Source: an uncultured Dorea sp. (GTDB taxonomy: Bacteria > Bacillota > Clostridia > Lachnospirales > Lachnospiraceae). Taken from it: a stretch of DNA of 64,000 nt. Positions within the stretch are counted from its first letter, which is position 1; every line of letters starts with the position of its first letter. Of the stretch, positions 53,553 to 60,344 are shown piece after piece. The stretch is from NCBI GenBank assembly GCA_947063855.1, contig CAMSTW010000010.1, positions 1 through 64,000 of the forward strand, in the 5' to 3' direction. Below the pieces are notes generated by a model that was given only the letters and a program-made list of their open reading frames with translations, did no database searches and was not told the DNA's origin. Position numbers and translations under genes: made by a program.

Positions 53553-54512
53553 TCACGCCCGCCCCGACAGGACCATCCTGCGGCCGAGCAGATACCTGTC
53601 AGGCGCTTTCGTCATCTGCGCAATCTGATCCATGAAAAGCTGAATCTGCAGTTCCCGGTTCGCCTTAAGCTTCTCCTTGATGGATTCAAGGAACTTCTCC
53701 TTACTGCCGGTATCCGAACCGGAAAATGTGCCGTTAAGCTCTACCTGATAAAGCTTCTCATACTGCTCGTCCTGATACTGCTGATACCCGGATCTGCCGG
53801 CGGCAACCAGATCGAAATTCCCGACCGCCCAATGCAGGGAAAATAACGCCGACTCCGCCGTATCCTCCCCGGAAGCATTCAGCATCTTCTGATACTCGGC
53901 ATAGGTCCCGGGATCGTATTTCTCCATGGCATACCGGATCTCTCCCCGGCTGTCCTCGTGCACATATCCATTCCCGTCCAGACCAATCACATCCTTTACC
54001 TGATACTTCATCTCACAGGAACCGACCCTCTTCCCTTCCATGCCGATCCGGGCGATGGAACGCATCGCCTCCATGAAGGCCCCCTTCGTCCCCCCGTCCA
54101 TAAACTGATCCGCGAGATATGCCGCCTTCTCAACCCCCAGACTGATCCGCGCCAGACGGTCCGCCTCTTCCACTCCATGGACGTTATTCGGAAGGAAATC
54201 CCTCCGGATAATATCATAGACGCCGTCCTTCAACTCCTGGCTCTTGCCCCTTAAGGCGTCTGTGATCGCATTATCTATCCTTGCATATCCTGTATGGAAC
54301 GGTCTTACCGGCCCATACTCGACCACCACGCCGGACGGCTTCGCAGGGGCTTGGGACGAGTCGCTCTTTGGAAGTGCAAGCGGTTCTTTATTCATAGGTT
54401 TCACAGCCGCAAAATTCTTCCTGATCTGCTCAACCTGGGCAGAATTAATCTTAGCCTTCCACGGGGTGATCGGCTGATATCCCACAGAATGAAAACAGGT
54501 ACACTGACTCAT
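53553..54512 (-). CDS. Uncharacterised 319-aa protein
   Basis: MSQCTCFHSVGYQPITPWKAKINSAQVEQIRKNFAAV; strong RBS GAAGGAGG; no family recognised. Confidence 0.7.
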   Translation of the reverse strand: MSQCTCFHSVGYQPITPWKAKINSAQVEQIRKNFAAVKPMNKEPLALPKSDSSQAPAKPSGVVVEYGPVRPFHTGYARIDNAITDALRGKSQELKDGVYDIIRRDFLPNNVHGVEEADRLARISLGVEKAAYLADQFMDGGTKGAFMEAMRSIARIGMEGKRVGSCEMKYQVKDVIGLDGNGYVHEDSRGEIRYAMEKYDPGTYAEYQKMLNASGEDTAESALFSLHWAVGNFDLVAAGRSGYQQYQDEQYEKLYQVELNGTFSGSDTGSKEKFLESIKEKLKANRELQIQLFMDQIAQMTKAPDRYLLGRRMVLSGRA

Positions 54513-54576: not shown

Positions 54577-54604
54577 ATATCGGCGAAGCCTCCCGCATTC
54601 TTTA
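54577..54604 (-). promoter_or_regulatory. Sigma-28/SigD-like promoter for the 319-aa gene
   Basis: Minus: TAAA (54601-54604), 16 bp, GCCGATAT (54577-54584). Confidence 0.55.
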
Positions 54605-54718
54605 GTGATTTGACAGATTTTCAAAAGGAAAGAGCTTCTGCCTCTTATGCATTTTCACTTACCCAATTTCCACTTTGATTTAAATTGAGGTTTTTTCATC
54701 CCTTTTTCTAATTTGAAT

Positions 54719-55354
54719 TTAAATATTATTGTTAATATCCTCTATCCACTTGCTATCATCACTTTCTAATAATTCTATAAATTTCCCAAAATTACTGCTT
54801 CCGATAATAGCATCATCCATTTCCAAACCATTCATCCTCTGCTTCATATTCACATAATTTTCCGCGGTAATATATTCCATAACGCTACGAATCTGATCTG
54901 TTCGTCCTTTATAGTTCTCCACCCCGGTATATTCCTTAATCAACGGCGCATTTACTAATTTTGCAGGTGATTTCAAATTTTTATCAGTCCAATGTTTAGA
55001 TATAATCTGCATCGTACATGGATTCCCAAACATAATCACTTCATCTGCAGCACTGTCAATGCCATGAAAATCATTAATCTTGCGTTTAATATCTTCATAT
55101 TGCTCATACGGTTTCTTTTCAGTGTCACAAAATACAAGCACAACTTCATCCGCACCGTTCTGGAAACGATCCTGATATCTCGCCGGTATATTACCATTGC
55201 CGCCTGCATTTACCAAAAAAATATCATATTGATCATTCCATACTTTCAAATCTTTCAGACGTTCAAGATATTCATATTCCTCATTCCCTTCACAGATGAT
55301 ACAGATTTTGTGCTTATTAGAAATCTTAGGGAGTTTATTTGACATCAATATCAT
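54719..55354 (-). CDS. RloB/TOPRIM-like protein
   Basis: ICIICEGNEEYEYLERLKDL...VVLVFCDTEKKPYEQYEDIKRKI...GNPCTMQIISKHW; TOPRIM-like E and acidic pair; 20-bp overlap with the upstream ATPase gene. Confidence 0.65.
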   Translation of the reverse strand: MILMSNKLPKISNKHKICIICEGNEEYEYLERLKDLKVWNDQYDIFLVNAGGNGNIPARYQDRFQNGADEVVLVFCDTEKKPYEQYEDIKRKINDFHGIDSAADEVIMFGNPCTMQIISKHWTDKNLKSPAKLVNAPLIKEYTGVENYKGRTDQIRSVMEYITAENYVNMKQRMNGLEMDDAIIGSSNFGKFIELLESDDSKWIEDINNNI

Positions 55355-56612
55355 CCCCCTTTGTATTCCCTTTAATGCTGAGCAAAGAGTTTATCAGTCC
55401 CGGATCCGGCAATGCGCCAAGCGCCCCTTTTCTATACTTTTCCACAACATCTGTTGTATCCCTTATTCCCTGTTGTGCAGTAAAATCTGCAAGAGAATAT
55501 ACATATACCCCTTCTTCATCCTTATGGACAAACCAAATCTGTTCCTTCCTGAACATCTTCTTACAATCCAAAAGATTAATATCATGTACCGTAAATATCA
55601 TCTGCGCATCGGTATTCAATTCATTATTAAACATTGCCACAATCGCCCTGGTAAGCTTAAAATGAATACTGCTGTCCAACTCATCGACAACAAGGATTCT
55701 GCCCCTTTCAAGTGCATCTATAATATAACCGGCAATAGCCGCAATCTTCTTTGTCCCCGTAGAATCAAACAACATGCTTGGTACATGAACACCTTTATAT
55801 GTGGAAACCAGCCTGATCTGATCCATAATATTTTCCGGAAGATCCAGTACTTTCTCTTCTGGTTTTTCATCACCTTCTCCCGTTTTCAACTGAATCTGAT
55901 CCATATCCACATACTCAAAATTATCCATATATAAGTCTGCATTCCTTATGAAACCAACTATTTTCTGTTGCATCCGATCCTTGTTTTTCATAAGTTCTAT
56001 GGTATGCTTCATAGGAATATCATTCATATTGATAATATCAATTTTCTCCGCCAACTCAACAAGAATCTGCTTAATCTCTTTGATCCGCTCAAATTTACTT
56101 GTATCTATCACATAACACAACAAATTATACTTTGATACAACTGGAATCATAGCCCGTACATCTTCGTCAACGCATTCATATACTTCATTAATTGTATCCT
56201 TTTTCAACCAGCATACTTCTTTTTCATTGCTATATTGATCTTTGAAAATCTCCGTAAAAGCTTCGTAAATATATTCTTCCTTTTGGGTATCAAATTTAAA
56301 GTCATAAGAGAATTTCCTGCCCGATATCATAAACGTCATACCTATCTCGCATACATCGCTGCCAGAAAAAATATTAGACGCCAACCCGCTTTTCTGATTT
56401 AAAAGTACCCTTTTCACAGCTCTGATACACTTAATCAGACATGTTTTTCCTGCATTGTTCGGTCCATAAACTCCCGCTACCTTAAGTACATTGAAATTAT
56501 TCTCTCTATGAACATTGGAGCCAAACTTCTTGTTCCGCATGTCTGCTTTCATTGAAAATGTAATATTATCCTCAAAAGCATAACAATTTTTTGCCCTTAC
56601 CTCAATAATCAT
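55335..56612 (-). CDS. AAA15 family ATPase (RloA/AbiLi-like)
   Basis: Walker A GVYGPNNAGKTCLIK; DSTGTKKIAAIAGYI; Walker B RILVVDELDSSIH; FTVHDINLLD. Confidence 0.88.
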   Translation of the reverse strand: MIIEVRAKNCYAFEDNITFSMKADMRNKKFGSNVHRENNFNVLKVAGVYGPNNAGKTCLIKCIRAVKRVLLNQKSGLASNIFSGSDVCEIGMTFMISGRKFSYDFKFDTQKEEYIYEAFTEIFKDQYSNEKEVCWLKKDTINEVYECVDEDVRAMIPVVSKYNLLCYVIDTSKFERIKEIKQILVELAEKIDIINMNDIPMKHTIELMKNKDRMQQKIVGFIRNADLYMDNFEYVDMDQIQLKTGEGDEKPEEKVLDLPENIMDQIRLVSTYKGVHVPSMLFDSTGTKKIAAIAGYIIDALERGRILVVDELDSSIHFKLTRAIVAMFNNELNTDAQMIFTVHDINLLDCKKMFRKEQIWFVHKDEEGVYVYSLADFTAQQGIRDTTDVVEKYRKGALGALPDPGLINSLLSIKGNTKGDDIDVK

Positions 56613-56642
56613 GAATTATTCCTCCAAATTGTTTATATCATT

Positions 56643-56670
56643 ATTATATCATTCAATATGTTTTATGCAA
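56643..56670 (-). promoter_or_regulatory. Sigma-A promoter of the AAA15/TOPRIM operon
   Basis: Minus: TTGCAT (56665-56670), 16 bp, TATAAT (56643-56648). Confidence 0.6.
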
Positions 56671-56733
56671 CTATTTTACACAAAATATATTTATTATTTG
56701 AGGTAACCAGAATTCTTCTTAATAATAACAAGA

Positions 56734-57955
56734 TTACTCTTCTGCCCTCCGTCCGAAAGCCACCCGGGAGGCTTTCTTTAAAGAACAGCGGTAAAGGATA
56801 TACTGACAGACGGATAACGCCGCGCAGACCCCCGCATTAAAAATTATCATCGGATACTCATTGGCAGTGAGTACTCCGTCATTCTGCCATAAGGTAAGTG
56901 TATAATAGACGAACATCAATATCACAGCCGCCGCTGTCGGCAGAACGAATACCTTTTGCAGCTGTTCTTCTAAGATCCGGTTCAGATATTCCTGTCCGGC
57001 TCCCAGTTTCTTCACATCCATCAGTACACGTTTGCTTTTCACAGCAACCGTGATACTTCTGGTATAACCAATCACACCTGCAGATACCAGACAGATCACC
57101 GATACAAAGATGAAGATCAACAGCAGCGTTGCATAAGTCAGTACAAAGCTTCTCTCCAAAAGTGGAACAAATACCGGACTGTATTTCCAGTCAACTTCTA
57201 TCTCCGGATGTTCCGGATAAAGCACTGCCGGCTCACCATAACCATAATCTTCATCCACATCTGCCCGATATTCATCATAGGAGGCCATCACACGCATACT
57301 GTCCGATACCGAATTGCAATATTTCGCATACAATTCCCTGGAAAATGCGTAAGTATCCCCTGCGTCTGAGACGTTAAACAACACCTGCGTCATCTGGAAC
57401 TCTTTTGATAATCCTTCTTTTAACTCTGCAAAATCTTCGTCATTTAGAATATAGCAAGCATCTCCATCCTGCCCGCGGCCATAAAAGAAACTGCTGTATT
57501 CTACAAAGCCCGCAAAGACCAGATCCTTCATTACTCCTGTGTCCGTATTTTCTGCCATATCCAGATCTTCGGGTAAAAACCAATAATTTTCTGTGTTATT
57601 CTTCCGATTGATATACAGATAAGTTCCCGGTTCTGCCTGCACTTCCATTCCTGTTGCTTTAGAAAATCCACTTGCACTTATAAAATTTTTATAATAATCC
57701 TTCTCACGGTATTCTTCAATAAGCTTACCGTTTTCATCATAATCCTCTCTCGCAACGCCGCTGCCAAGCAGACGCACAATCTCCACTTCCCGGTAATCGG
57801 TAATCTCTACGCCATACTCTGCCGCAGCAGCTTCTACATCCTGCACCGTCAATCCATCCGCATCTCCAAGATAACGGAAGGACATATCATTATCTTCGCC
57901 TGCCGCAATCGCTGCCCCCTGAATATAATTCGTTGCAGAGTAGAATATCGCAAAT
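56734..57955 (-). pseudogene. FtsX-like ABC permease, N-terminal part deleted (C-terminal fragment)
   Basis: Permease frame can be read upstream of the annotated ATG as LFAIFYSATNYIQGAAIAAGEDNDMSFRYLGDADG and then breaks into ATPase sequence. Confidence 0.75.
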
Positions 57956-58628
57956 AAACCAGCTCTGAATGAACCTTCCCGTCTTTCATCATGATCACGC
58001 GGTCACAATAGCTTGCGGAAAATGTATCGTGAGTCACCATCAGTATCGTTGCGCCCAATGTTTTCTTTGCCTCAATGAATGCCTGAATGACCGCCTCACC
58101 GGATCGGCTGTCTAAATTCCCCGTCGGTTCGTCGGCAAGAATTGCCAGCGGATCGTTCATGAGAGAACGTGCTACCGCCGCACGTTGCTTCTGCCCGCCG
58201 GAAATCTCTGCCGGATATTTATCTGCTATATGTTCAATGCCAAACATCTTAAGAAGTTTTCCTGCTTTTTTCTCCATCACTCTATAATCTTCGCCGCGGA
58301 TCACCTTTGGCACGCATATATTCTCAAACACGGTGAGTCCATCAAGCAGCATAAAGTCCTGAAATACAAAACCTAACTGCTCGTTTCTCACTCTCGCGAT
58401 TTCTTCTTCGCTTAATCCCGAAAGGCAGACGCCATCCAAAGTAATCTCGCCTTTATCGTAGGGATGGAAACAGGAAATGCAGTTGAGCATGGTTGTCTTC
58501 CCACTTCCGGATGCCCCCATGACCGCTGCAAACTCTCCCTCTTTCACCTCAAAACAGACATCCTTTAATACCTCATATGTTACCTTTCCCGTTTTGTAAC
58601 TTTTAAATAAATGATCTACTTTTAACAT
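57849..58628 (-). pseudogene. BceA-type ABC ATPase with C-terminus replaced by out-of-frame permease sequence
   Basis: Normal to HDTFSASYCDRVIMMKDGKVHSEL, then VYLRYSTLQRIIFRGQRLRQAKIMICPSVILEMRMD, the +frame reading of the permease fragment. Confidence 0.7.
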
Positions 58629-59020
58629 GAAAGTCCCTCCTCATCTCATTTCATCTCTTTCAATAGTTCTATTTTATAAAAGAACGGTGAAAAATACTAT
58701 TTACTGAAATGTAAAGTTTTGATGAGTTTTTGTAAAATTGGGGAGACTTTACTTTAAGAAAACTTCCTTCTCTTATTCCGCCATCTTTTTATTATTCAAT
58801 TCATGCTTTGTGACCGTCTGGTTCTTCTCATATATATTATTTACCTTCGATTCCTCTGTCTTATCCGTCTGTTTTGCCAGTTCCTTTGCAATTTGTTCAT
58901 CAATCGAATCTAACTGTTTCTGGTTTCCTGCTGGTTCGTTATTTATGGCCTCTACTGCGGCGAACAATTTACATCGCGGTCAAACCATAGCACTGATACA
59001 TAATGTTAATGATTGTGTTT

Positions 59021-59173
59021 TTATCCGTACCTCTTACTCCAATGGACTTCAAATCTGTGAAAAGTAAGTTCCTCATTTTCCATAATCAAATCGCAAGCCG
59101 TACCACCAATGATTACATATTGATTTTCATATCCCTGAAACCTTTCCTTAAATTTTGTAAATCCATTAACCAT
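59021..59173 (-). pseudogene. Truncated AbiEii-like nucleotidyltransferase toxin fragment
   Basis: MVNGFTKFKERFQGYENQYVIIGGTACDLIMENEELTF then unrelated sequence and stop; ATGGTTAA overlap with the upstream gene. Confidence 0.6.
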
Positions 59174-60104
59174 AATCTTTAAGTTCTCCTTCTGTCAGTT
59201 CTTCTACGGCTTCATCAATTCTTTCATCAGAATTATCCTGAAAGGATAACACAACAGAGAGACTATCCGCAGTATTGTCGCTTGAAAACATCTGTGGGTC
59301 GTATGCCCACAATTCAAGTCTGACCTGTTTTTCAGGGTCGATCAATTCATCGGTCAGAAGCTTCTTATCAAAATCCTTGTCACTTACTGCGTATGTGATA
59401 ACCCTGCTCGGATTTAACATTGTTTTCTCAGCAAGTGCAGATTCTCCGGCATATCTCATATCAGAAACAACCCGTGATTTATCTATATATCCCATCTTGC
59501 GAACCGGAGTCGATAAATACTTCTTAGCCTTTTCAAATAACTCTGACCTTTCATATTTTGATTCGATTACTTTATTTACACCCTCTTTTGTGATGAGGAA
59601 CAAGCCGGTGGCTTCTAGTTGTCTCACAGCTCTTGTTAACGTCATCGCAGTAAATGGAAGCTTTTTTGAAGCTTCGGAAACATACATCCGTTTTTTCTTA
59701 CTATACAGATAAAACAAAAACAACTGCTGCGCAGAAAAAACAAATTTCTTTACTTTCTTTTCCGGTTCTTTTTCGTCTGTCAGCATTGTTCCGATGAATG
59801 GAAGAAACACCTGTTTTTCTGTAATAAACGGTATATTATTCTCTATAAGACTTTTTCTTCGATAAGGAGATACTGTTCTAAGTTCAAGAATTACAGGTAC
59901 GCTATCCGCTTCCTGAATTTTCATTATCTGCTTTTTTAACGCCGGCAGTGTAGCAATTTCTTCTGTCGGTTTAATCATAATGCAGCGTTTATCAGCAATA
60001 TAGGCTGTACGAAAATCATAACTTCCAGCTATATACAAAGGCATTGAACTTTTTTTATTCCAAGTTTCATATTTTATAGGAATTCCAAATATACTTTCAG
60101 GCAT
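59166..60104 (-). CDS. Winged-helix, AbiEi/MarR-like antitoxin-type protein
   Basis: AQQLFLFYLYSKKKRMYVSEASKKLPFTAMTLTRAVRQLEATGLFLITKEGVNKVIES; translationally coupled to the toxin fragment. Confidence 0.65.
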   Translation of the reverse strand: MPESIFGIPIKYETWNKKSSMPLYIAGSYDFRTAYIADKRCIMIKPTEEIATLPALKKQIMKIQEADSVPVILELRTVSPYRRKSLIENNIPFITEKQVFLPFIGTMLTDEKEPEKKVKKFVFSAQQLFLFYLYSKKKRMYVSEASKKLPFTAMTLTRAVRQLEATGLFLITKEGVNKVIESKYERSELFEKAKKYLSTPVRKMGYIDKSRVVSDMRYAGESALAEKTMLNPSRVITYAVSDKDFDKKLLTDELIDPEKQVRLELWAYDPQMFSSDNTADSLSVVLSFQDNSDERIDEAVEELTEGELKDYG

Positions 60105-60119
60105 ATTTTATTGTTCTCC

Positions 60120-60167
60120 TTTTAACTTATTTTATTCTATTTTAACTTATGAAATGTTAAAAGTCAA
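60120..60167 (-). promoter_or_regulatory. Promoter with overlapping operator repeats for the antitoxin-type gene
   Basis: TTGACT (60162-60167), 17 bp, TAAAAT (60139-60144); TTTTAACTTAT at 60120-60130 and 60140-60150. Confidence 0.65.
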
Positions 60168-60344
60168 TTTTTAAGTTAAATCATACTCACAGTTTACTAT
60201 CCCTTCCTATTGGCATTTTATTCGCTTAACTCTATCGGATTGACGTATTTATACAATCCGCCTGAAGCTTTACCTGTCAATGATATTGTGACAATATCCG
60301 GGATACATTTACACAGATGTAGTAAACGGATCATTTTTTGACGC

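What the first reader, a model, noticed from the sequence alone, without database searches (positions are those of the whole stretch)
54719..56670. Two-gene AAA15 ATPase + divergent TOPRIM/RloB-like cassette, candidate anti-phage system
Seen: a TATAAT promoter drives an RloA/AbiLi-like ATPase with Walker A GPNNAGKT, DSTGT signature and Walker B VVDELD. It overlaps by 20 bp a 211-aa protein with CEGNEEYEYL and FCDTEKK motifs and a GNPCTMQ block reminiscent of RloB. Established: AAA15 ATPases paired with TOPRIM effectors occur in the AbiL, PARIS and OLD/Gabija-like defence families. Inference: the effector looks divergent (D-T-E rather than canonical DxD), so this may be an undescribed subtype. 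It lies between an orphan gene and a broken ABC transporter, in an accessory setting.
Basis: partly seen in the sequence, partly recalled or inferred. Interest (0 to 1): 0.75.

Follow-up and report, generated by a model that had tools for sequence, protein, structure and literature searches.

The report
AbiL-like ATPase–TOPRIM phage-defence gene pair
A mobile two-gene cassette in a gut bacterium (family Lachnospiraceae) pairs an ATPase sensor with a small toxic-nuclease-like protein, and is a sequence-diverged branch of the known AbiL/RloAB type of anti-phage suicide system rather than a new kind.

Summary
In detail: two overlapping minus-strand genes encode a 425-aa ABC/AAA_21 ATPase and a 211-aa protein with TOPRIM-like motifs. 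PADLOC's AbiLi model matches the ATPase at E 2.6e-68, and its AbiLii model matches the partner at E 2.1e-7 and all 65 family members tested. The partner family is homologous over its length to RloB/AbiLii (profile comparison E 2.7e-8; score 58, shuffled maximum 23). A confident AlphaFold model (pLDDT 92) has TOPRIM-like topology with the acidic residues at the expected strand ends; the structure search itself is only suggestive. The pair is conserved: 76 of 76 loci with enough upstream sequence carry the ATPase just upstream, usually overlapping. Neighbouring genes are otherwise unrelated, and the block is missing at this site in a same-genus genome. The real divergence is replacement of RloB's 'FExW' motif by 'CTMQ'. 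Best reading: a diverged AbiL-type abortive-infection module in which an ATPase oligomer restrains, and on infection releases, a TOPRIM nuclease. The target (tRNA, by analogy with PARIS) and trigger are inferred. New variant of a known kind; modest interest.

The parts
55335..56612 (-). AbiLi/RloA-like ABC/AAA_21 ATPase, 425 aa; Walker A GPNNAGKT, signature DSTGT, Walker B VVDELD, H-loop His343
   Evidence: AAA_21 E 6.8e-21; PADLOC AbiLi E 2.6e-68; motifs invariant across relatives
54719..55354 (-). AbiLii/RloB-like TOPRIM-fold candidate nuclease effector, 211 aa (a start at Met4, 55345, is also possible); E22, D77-x-E79, N111, H121 conserved
55335..55354 (-). 20-bp overlap of the two genes (11 bp if Met4 is the start); overlap of 8-38 bp is the rule in relatives (56 of 61)
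56621..56625 (-). GGAGG ribosome-binding-site-like sequence 8 bases before the ATPase start codon
   Evidence: sequence
56643..56648 (-). TATAAT, possible -10 element; no scored -35 partner

Best explanation
It is a two-gene AbiL-type abortive-infection module. The first gene makes an ABC-class ATPase that probably oligomerises, acts as infection sensor and holds the second protein inactive. The second gene makes a TOPRIM-fold, two-metal nuclease (Glu22, Asp77, Glu/Asp79). When a phage signal changes the ATPase, the nuclease is released or activated. It then cuts a cell component needed for growth, most likely tRNA or other RNA by analogy with PARIS AriB, and the infected cell stops before phage are made. 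Shown here: the genes, their conserved operon, homology to AbiLi and to AbiLii/RloB, the conserved acidic positions, a predicted fold compatible with TOPRIM, mobility. Inferred: nuclease activity, restraint by the ATPase, trigger, target and phage resistance.
For: PADLOC AbiLi E 2.6e-68 and AbiLii E 2.1e-7; AbiLii model hits 65 of 65 family members; Pfam OLD-like TOPRIM in 33 of 65 and RloB in 8 of 65 at E <= 0.01. hhalign of the partner family against RloB/AbiLii proteins: probability 95%, E 2.7e-8, score 58, against at most 23 in 100 column-shuffled controls and 14.6 reversed. Joint alignment keeps E22, G23, E26, Y29, D77, N111, H121 and Y148 invariant. AlphaFold model pLDDT 92, pTM 0.88; strands at 15-21, 43-49, 71-77 and 107-110 put E22 and D77 at strand ends as in TOPRIM; among the listed solved structures the OLD C-terminal catalytic region 6nk8_A has the highest TM-score (0.49/0.52). 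Pairing 76 of 76, same strand, overlapping; A and B distances correlate r 0.90. Most distant AbiLi-like ATPases examined in the same bacterial family have an RloB-type gene next to them. Some relatives sit beside Thoeris, CBASS-type cyclase, AbiE, AbiG and R-M genes. Literature: F. nucleatum AbiLii is toxic in E. coli (PMC3985639); an RloB-class TOPRIM with its AAA partner behaves as a toxin-neutraliser pair (PMC10440598); PARIS AriA holds the TOPRIM tRNase AriB inactive until infection (PMC12409363).
Against: No wet-lab data for this subfamily. Foldseek matches are weak (best OLD hit E 5e-3; generic Rossmann-like folds such as lumazine synthase rank beside it; PARIS AriB not in the top 50). 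RloB's conserved FExW is absent here. In E. coli the lactococcal AbiLii was not toxic, and the F. nucleatum ATPase did not neutralise its partner (PMC3985639), so the restraint model is not general. No relative of the partner was found in phage, plasmid or viral collections.
Confidence: 0.8

Rival explanations
1. Same architecture, but the TOPRIM protein is a DNA nuclease activated by the ATPase on phage DNA, as in Gabija/OLD, so the phage genome rather than host RNA is attacked.
For: Pfam OLD-like TOPRIM matches 33 of 65 members; the best-TM solved structure is an OLD nuclease C-terminal region; OLD-class enzymes cut DNA (PMC10568477).
Against: The two-gene layout and the AbiLi/AriA-like ATPase (PADLOC AbiLi 2.6e-68, AriA 3.1e-23, GajA 0.003) are closer to AbiL/PARIS, whose characterised effector AriB cuts tRNA.
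Confidence: 0.3
2. A toxin-antitoxin-like stabilisation module of mobile DNA in which the ATPase only neutralises the TOPRIM toxin and phage defence is incidental.
For: AAA-TOPRIM pairs neutralise in toxicity assays (PMC10440598). The partner gene is interrupted in 9 of 80 loci (8 independent events) against about 2 for the longer ATPase gene, as for a costly toxin. One genome keeps the ATPase without the partner (L131).
Against: Loss of the toxin from a genome that keeps the antitoxin shows only decay, not addiction. Homologues (AbiL, PARIS) are phage-defence systems, and several relatives sit among defence genes.
Confidence: 0.15
3. A housekeeping or non-immune function (RNA or DNA metabolism) for an ATPase-TOPRIM pair, as reported for the archaeal OLD-family ATPase Cran1 in cell-cycle progression.
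For: OLD-family members with non-immune roles exist (PMC12796447, abstract).
Against: Patchy distribution: 15 of 298 family genomes and 2 of 12 same-genus genomes, the other same-genus copy only 60% identical; frequent decay, low GC, unrelated neighbours.
Confidence: 0.05

Closest known systems
AbiL (AbiLi + AbiLii), Lactococcus lactis abortive infection
   Same: ATPase first and TOPRIM-type partner second, adjacent genes on one strand; both genes matched by PADLOC AbiLi/AbiLii models. A lactococcal prophage pair annotated 'abortive phage resistance protein' (L040) has the same layout and its ATPase aligns.
   Different: Only about 26% identity over 193 aa in the ATPase to the lactococcal prophage copy; the partner lacks FExW and the RloB C-terminal NP-TT block; no phage data.
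RloA/RloB (Pfam RloB, PF13707)
   Same: Homologous partner over most of its length with E22-G23, D77, N111, H121, Y148 in register.
   Different: The window's protein does not reach Pfam's RloB cut-off; only 8 of 65 members match the model at E <= 0.01; 'SNxxFExWxLLHF' is 'GNPCTMQIISKHW' here.
PARIS (AriA + AriB/DUF4435)
   Same: Two-gene ATPase plus TOPRIM nuclease logic; the ATPase also matches an AriA model (E 3.1e-23).
   Different: The partner does not match AriB models, and AriB was not among the 50 listed fold matches. Trigger and tRNA target not shown here.
OLD / Gabija GajA
   Same: ABC-type ATPase with OLD-type TOPRIM; OLD C-terminal region is the highest-TM solved structure.
   Different: The domains are on separate genes here; no GajB helicase gene in the pair.

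Membership tests
AbiL (AbiLi/AbiLii) | First gene encodes an AbiLi-type ATPase | tested here: met
   PADLOC AbiLi E 2.6e-68, query residues 1-408
AbiL (AbiLi/AbiLii) | Second gene encodes AbiLii | tested here: met
   PADLOC AbiLii E 2.1e-7 in the window, 65 of 65 family members at E <= 1e-3; weak, with part of the model covered
AbiL (AbiLi/AbiLii) | Adjacent operon conserved across genomes | tested here: met
   76 of 76 loci with enough upstream DNA; overlap in 56 of 61
AbiL (AbiLi/AbiLii) | Abortive infection phenotype against phage | not testable with these tools
   needs a phage challenge
TOPRIM nuclease | Conserved Glu after first strand and DxD/DxE after a later strand | tested here: met
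   E22 and D77 in 69/69; residue 79 Glu 53, Asp 16; located at strand ends 21 and 77 in a pLDDT 92 model
TOPRIM nuclease | Significant structural match to a solved TOPRIM protein | tested here: inconclusive
   OLD C-terminal region TM 0.49/0.52 but Foldseek E 1.2e-2, with generic Rossmann folds beside it
RloB (PF13707) | Pfam gathering score reached by the window's protein | tested here: not met
   no PF13707 match at E <= 1; own-genome search negative; 8 of 65 family members match at E <= 0.01
RloB (PF13707) | S-N-x-x-F-E-x-W-x-L-L-H motif | tested here: not met
   replaced by G-N-P-C-T-M-Q-I-I-S-K-H; only N111 and H121 kept
PARIS | AriB (DUF4435) effector | tested here: not met
   no AriB/DUF4435 match in PADLOC or Pfam at E <= 1
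PARIS | Effector cleaves tRNA after an anti-restriction trigger | not testable with these tools
   needs biochemistry and phage genetics

The most novel reading that the evidence does not exclude
The CTMQ-type partner family is a functionally distinct TOPRIM effector (different active-site layout and target from RloB/AriB) with its own trigger in gut Clostridia, that is, a new AbiL subtype.
Probability: 0.3. Interest if true: 0.5.

Novelty: new variant of a known kind. Interest (0 to 1): 0.3.

Why it matters
AbiL was described in 1999, but in the papers found here neither its effector activity nor its trigger had been worked out. This subfamily is compact, highly conserved and present in culturable gut bacteria (for example Eubacterium uniforme ATCC 35992, Pseudobutyrivibrio ruminis CF1b, Ruminobacter amylophilus DSM 1361). 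It gives clean residues to mutate and a natural contrast to RloB and AriB for asking what fixes the target of TOPRIM effectors. It does not open a new category.

Tried and rejected
Direct sequence search of the partner against solved structures: only spurious ubiquitin hits; profile search of A4: nothing relevant; ATPase: nothing significant. Partner in plasmid, phage and viral collections: none. First fold model from 9 sequences was weak (pLDDT 70), so it was rebuilt with 65 sequences. 'D-T-E as a divergent catalytic triad' rejected because Asp stands at that place in 16 of 69. In-frame stops in some relatives' partner genes considered as readthrough; rejected as the simplest reading because frameshifts occur as well and positions differ. 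A conserved third gene was looked for: 374 flanking ORFs fell into 314 clusters, 277 of them singletons, the largest cluster in 5 loci. NapD, Ploopntkinase3 and lumazine-synthase matches dismissed as chance or generic folds.

Full report
What is there. The stretch holds two minus-strand genes. The first, 55335-56612, encodes a 425-aa ATPase with Walker A GPNNAGKT, signature DSTGT and Walker B VVDELD. The second, 54719-55354, encodes a 211-aa protein; the two overlap by 20 bp. Met4 of the second protein is invariant in the nine-sequence alignment, so it may start nine bases later, giving an 11-bp overlap, which is the commonest spacing in the family. The pair has a GC content of about 0.36, against 0.48-0.54 to its left.

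Identity of the ATPase. Pfam gives AAA_21 (E 6.8e-21), with AAA_15 only at 0.05. PADLOC gives AbiLi at E 2.6e-68, well ahead of AriA (3.1e-23) and GajA (0.003).

Identity of the partner. Alone, the 211-aa protein shows only weak matches: OLD-like TOPRIM 1.1e-3, below its cut-off, and PADLOC AbiLii 2.1e-7. As a family the case is firm. A genome scan found 98 relatives, 80 of them kept as loci, mostly Lachnospiraceae and other Clostridia, with a clear outlier in the gammaproteobacterium Ruminobacter amylophilus. All 65 non-redundant members match AbiLii, 33 match OLD-like TOPRIM and 8 match RloB. Profile comparison with RloB-type partners of other AbiLi-like ATPases gave probability 95%, E 2.7e-8, score 58. 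One hundred column-shuffled controls reached 23 at most, and the reversed control 14.6. In a joint alignment E22, G23, E26, Y29, D77, N111, H121 and Y148 are invariant in both groups. The seven comparison proteins checked match Pfam RloB strongly.

Fold. With 65 aligned sequences AlphaFold gave pLDDT 92 and pTM 0.88. Four strands alternate with helices; E22 follows strand 15-21 and D77 ends strand 71-77, the TOPRIM arrangement as I know it. The structure search is not decisive: the highest TM-score in the list is the OLD nuclease C-terminal region (6nk8_A, 0.49/0.52), but Foldseek E-values are about 1e-2 and generic Rossmann-like folds score beside it.

How divergent. The real difference from RloB is 'SNxxFExWxLLHF', which reads 'GNPCTMQIISKHW' with only N and H kept.

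Co-occurrence. In every locus where the contig reaches far enough upstream (76 of 76) the ATPase gene is just upstream. Where both are intact they are on the same strand, within 50 bp and overlapping in 56 of 61. Pairwise distances of the two proteins correlate (r 0.90, permutation maximum 0.26), meaning they travel as a unit. In 298 family genomes, ATPases above 55% identity form a group set apart from the 25-34% group (one short 72% fragment in G192). Among the distant AbiLi-like ATPase loci examined in that family, most carry an RloB-type gene next to the ATPase.

Mobility and setting. Flanking genes are almost all different between loci (314 clusters from 374 ORFs). Some loci adjoin Thoeris, CBASS-type cyclase, AbiE, AbiG, R-M and MADS genes; I have no background rate, so this is only suggestive. 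In the window, the gene at 53553-54512 lies next to the histidine-kinase gene (60345 onwards) in same-genus genome G601, so the block 54.6-60.3 kb is missing there; G261 and G597 have other DNA at that place. Only one other genome of the genus (2 of 12 including this one) has a copy, 60% identical, while other genera have 80% identical copies: a sign of horizontal transfer.

Decay. Among the 80 loci the partner gene is interrupted by stops or frameshifts in nine (L048, L060, L079/L080 sharing one stop, L113, L120, L121, L122, L123), against about two for the twice-as-long ATPase gene (L054, L092). One further genome keeps an 82%-identical ATPase with no partner (L131). This fits a costly effector, but numbers are small and metagenome assemblies can carry errors.

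Mechanism. By homology and literature the likeliest mechanism is the AbiL/PARIS logic: ATPase sensor-inhibitor, TOPRIM nuclease effector. AriA sequesters the tRNase AriB, a two-metal enzyme inactivated by E26A (PMC12409363). An RloB-class TOPRIM and AAA pair was shown as toxin and neutraliser (PMC10440598). F. nucleatum AbiLii is toxic in E. coli, although its AbiLi did not neutralise it and lactococcal AbiLii was not toxic (PMC3985639). Target and trigger here are unknown; given a nuclease, I give about 0.6 to RNA (tRNA first) and 0.3 to DNA.

Verdict. A real, conserved, mobile two-gene defence candidate of the AbiL kind with a sequence-diverged effector subfamily: a new variant of a known kind, modest interest.

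Noticed in passing
window 56734-58628 (-): Broken ABC transporter beside the pair: the permease is 383 aa against 714-715 aa in same-genus relatives; about 970 bp are missing at 57958/57960.
   Followed up: partly
window 54585-60344: Accessory block missing in same-genus G601 and replaced by other DNA in G261 and G597, between a genus-conserved 319-aa orphan gene and a histidine-kinase gene.
   Followed up: partly
window 59166-60104 (-): 312-aa protein with only a weak winged-helix (MarR/SarA-like) match in its middle; unknown, in the same accessory block.
   Followed up: no
L048, L060, L079/L080, L113, L120-L123: Partner (effector) gene interrupted while the ATPase gene beside it is mostly intact; may reflect effector cost.
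   Followed up: partly
L101 (Ruminobacter amylophilus DSM 1361): Copy of the pair in a gammaproteobacterial isolate, partner 62-64% identical: transfer across phyla.
   Followed up: no
L131: 82%-identical ATPase gene without a partner gene downstream.
   Followed up: partly
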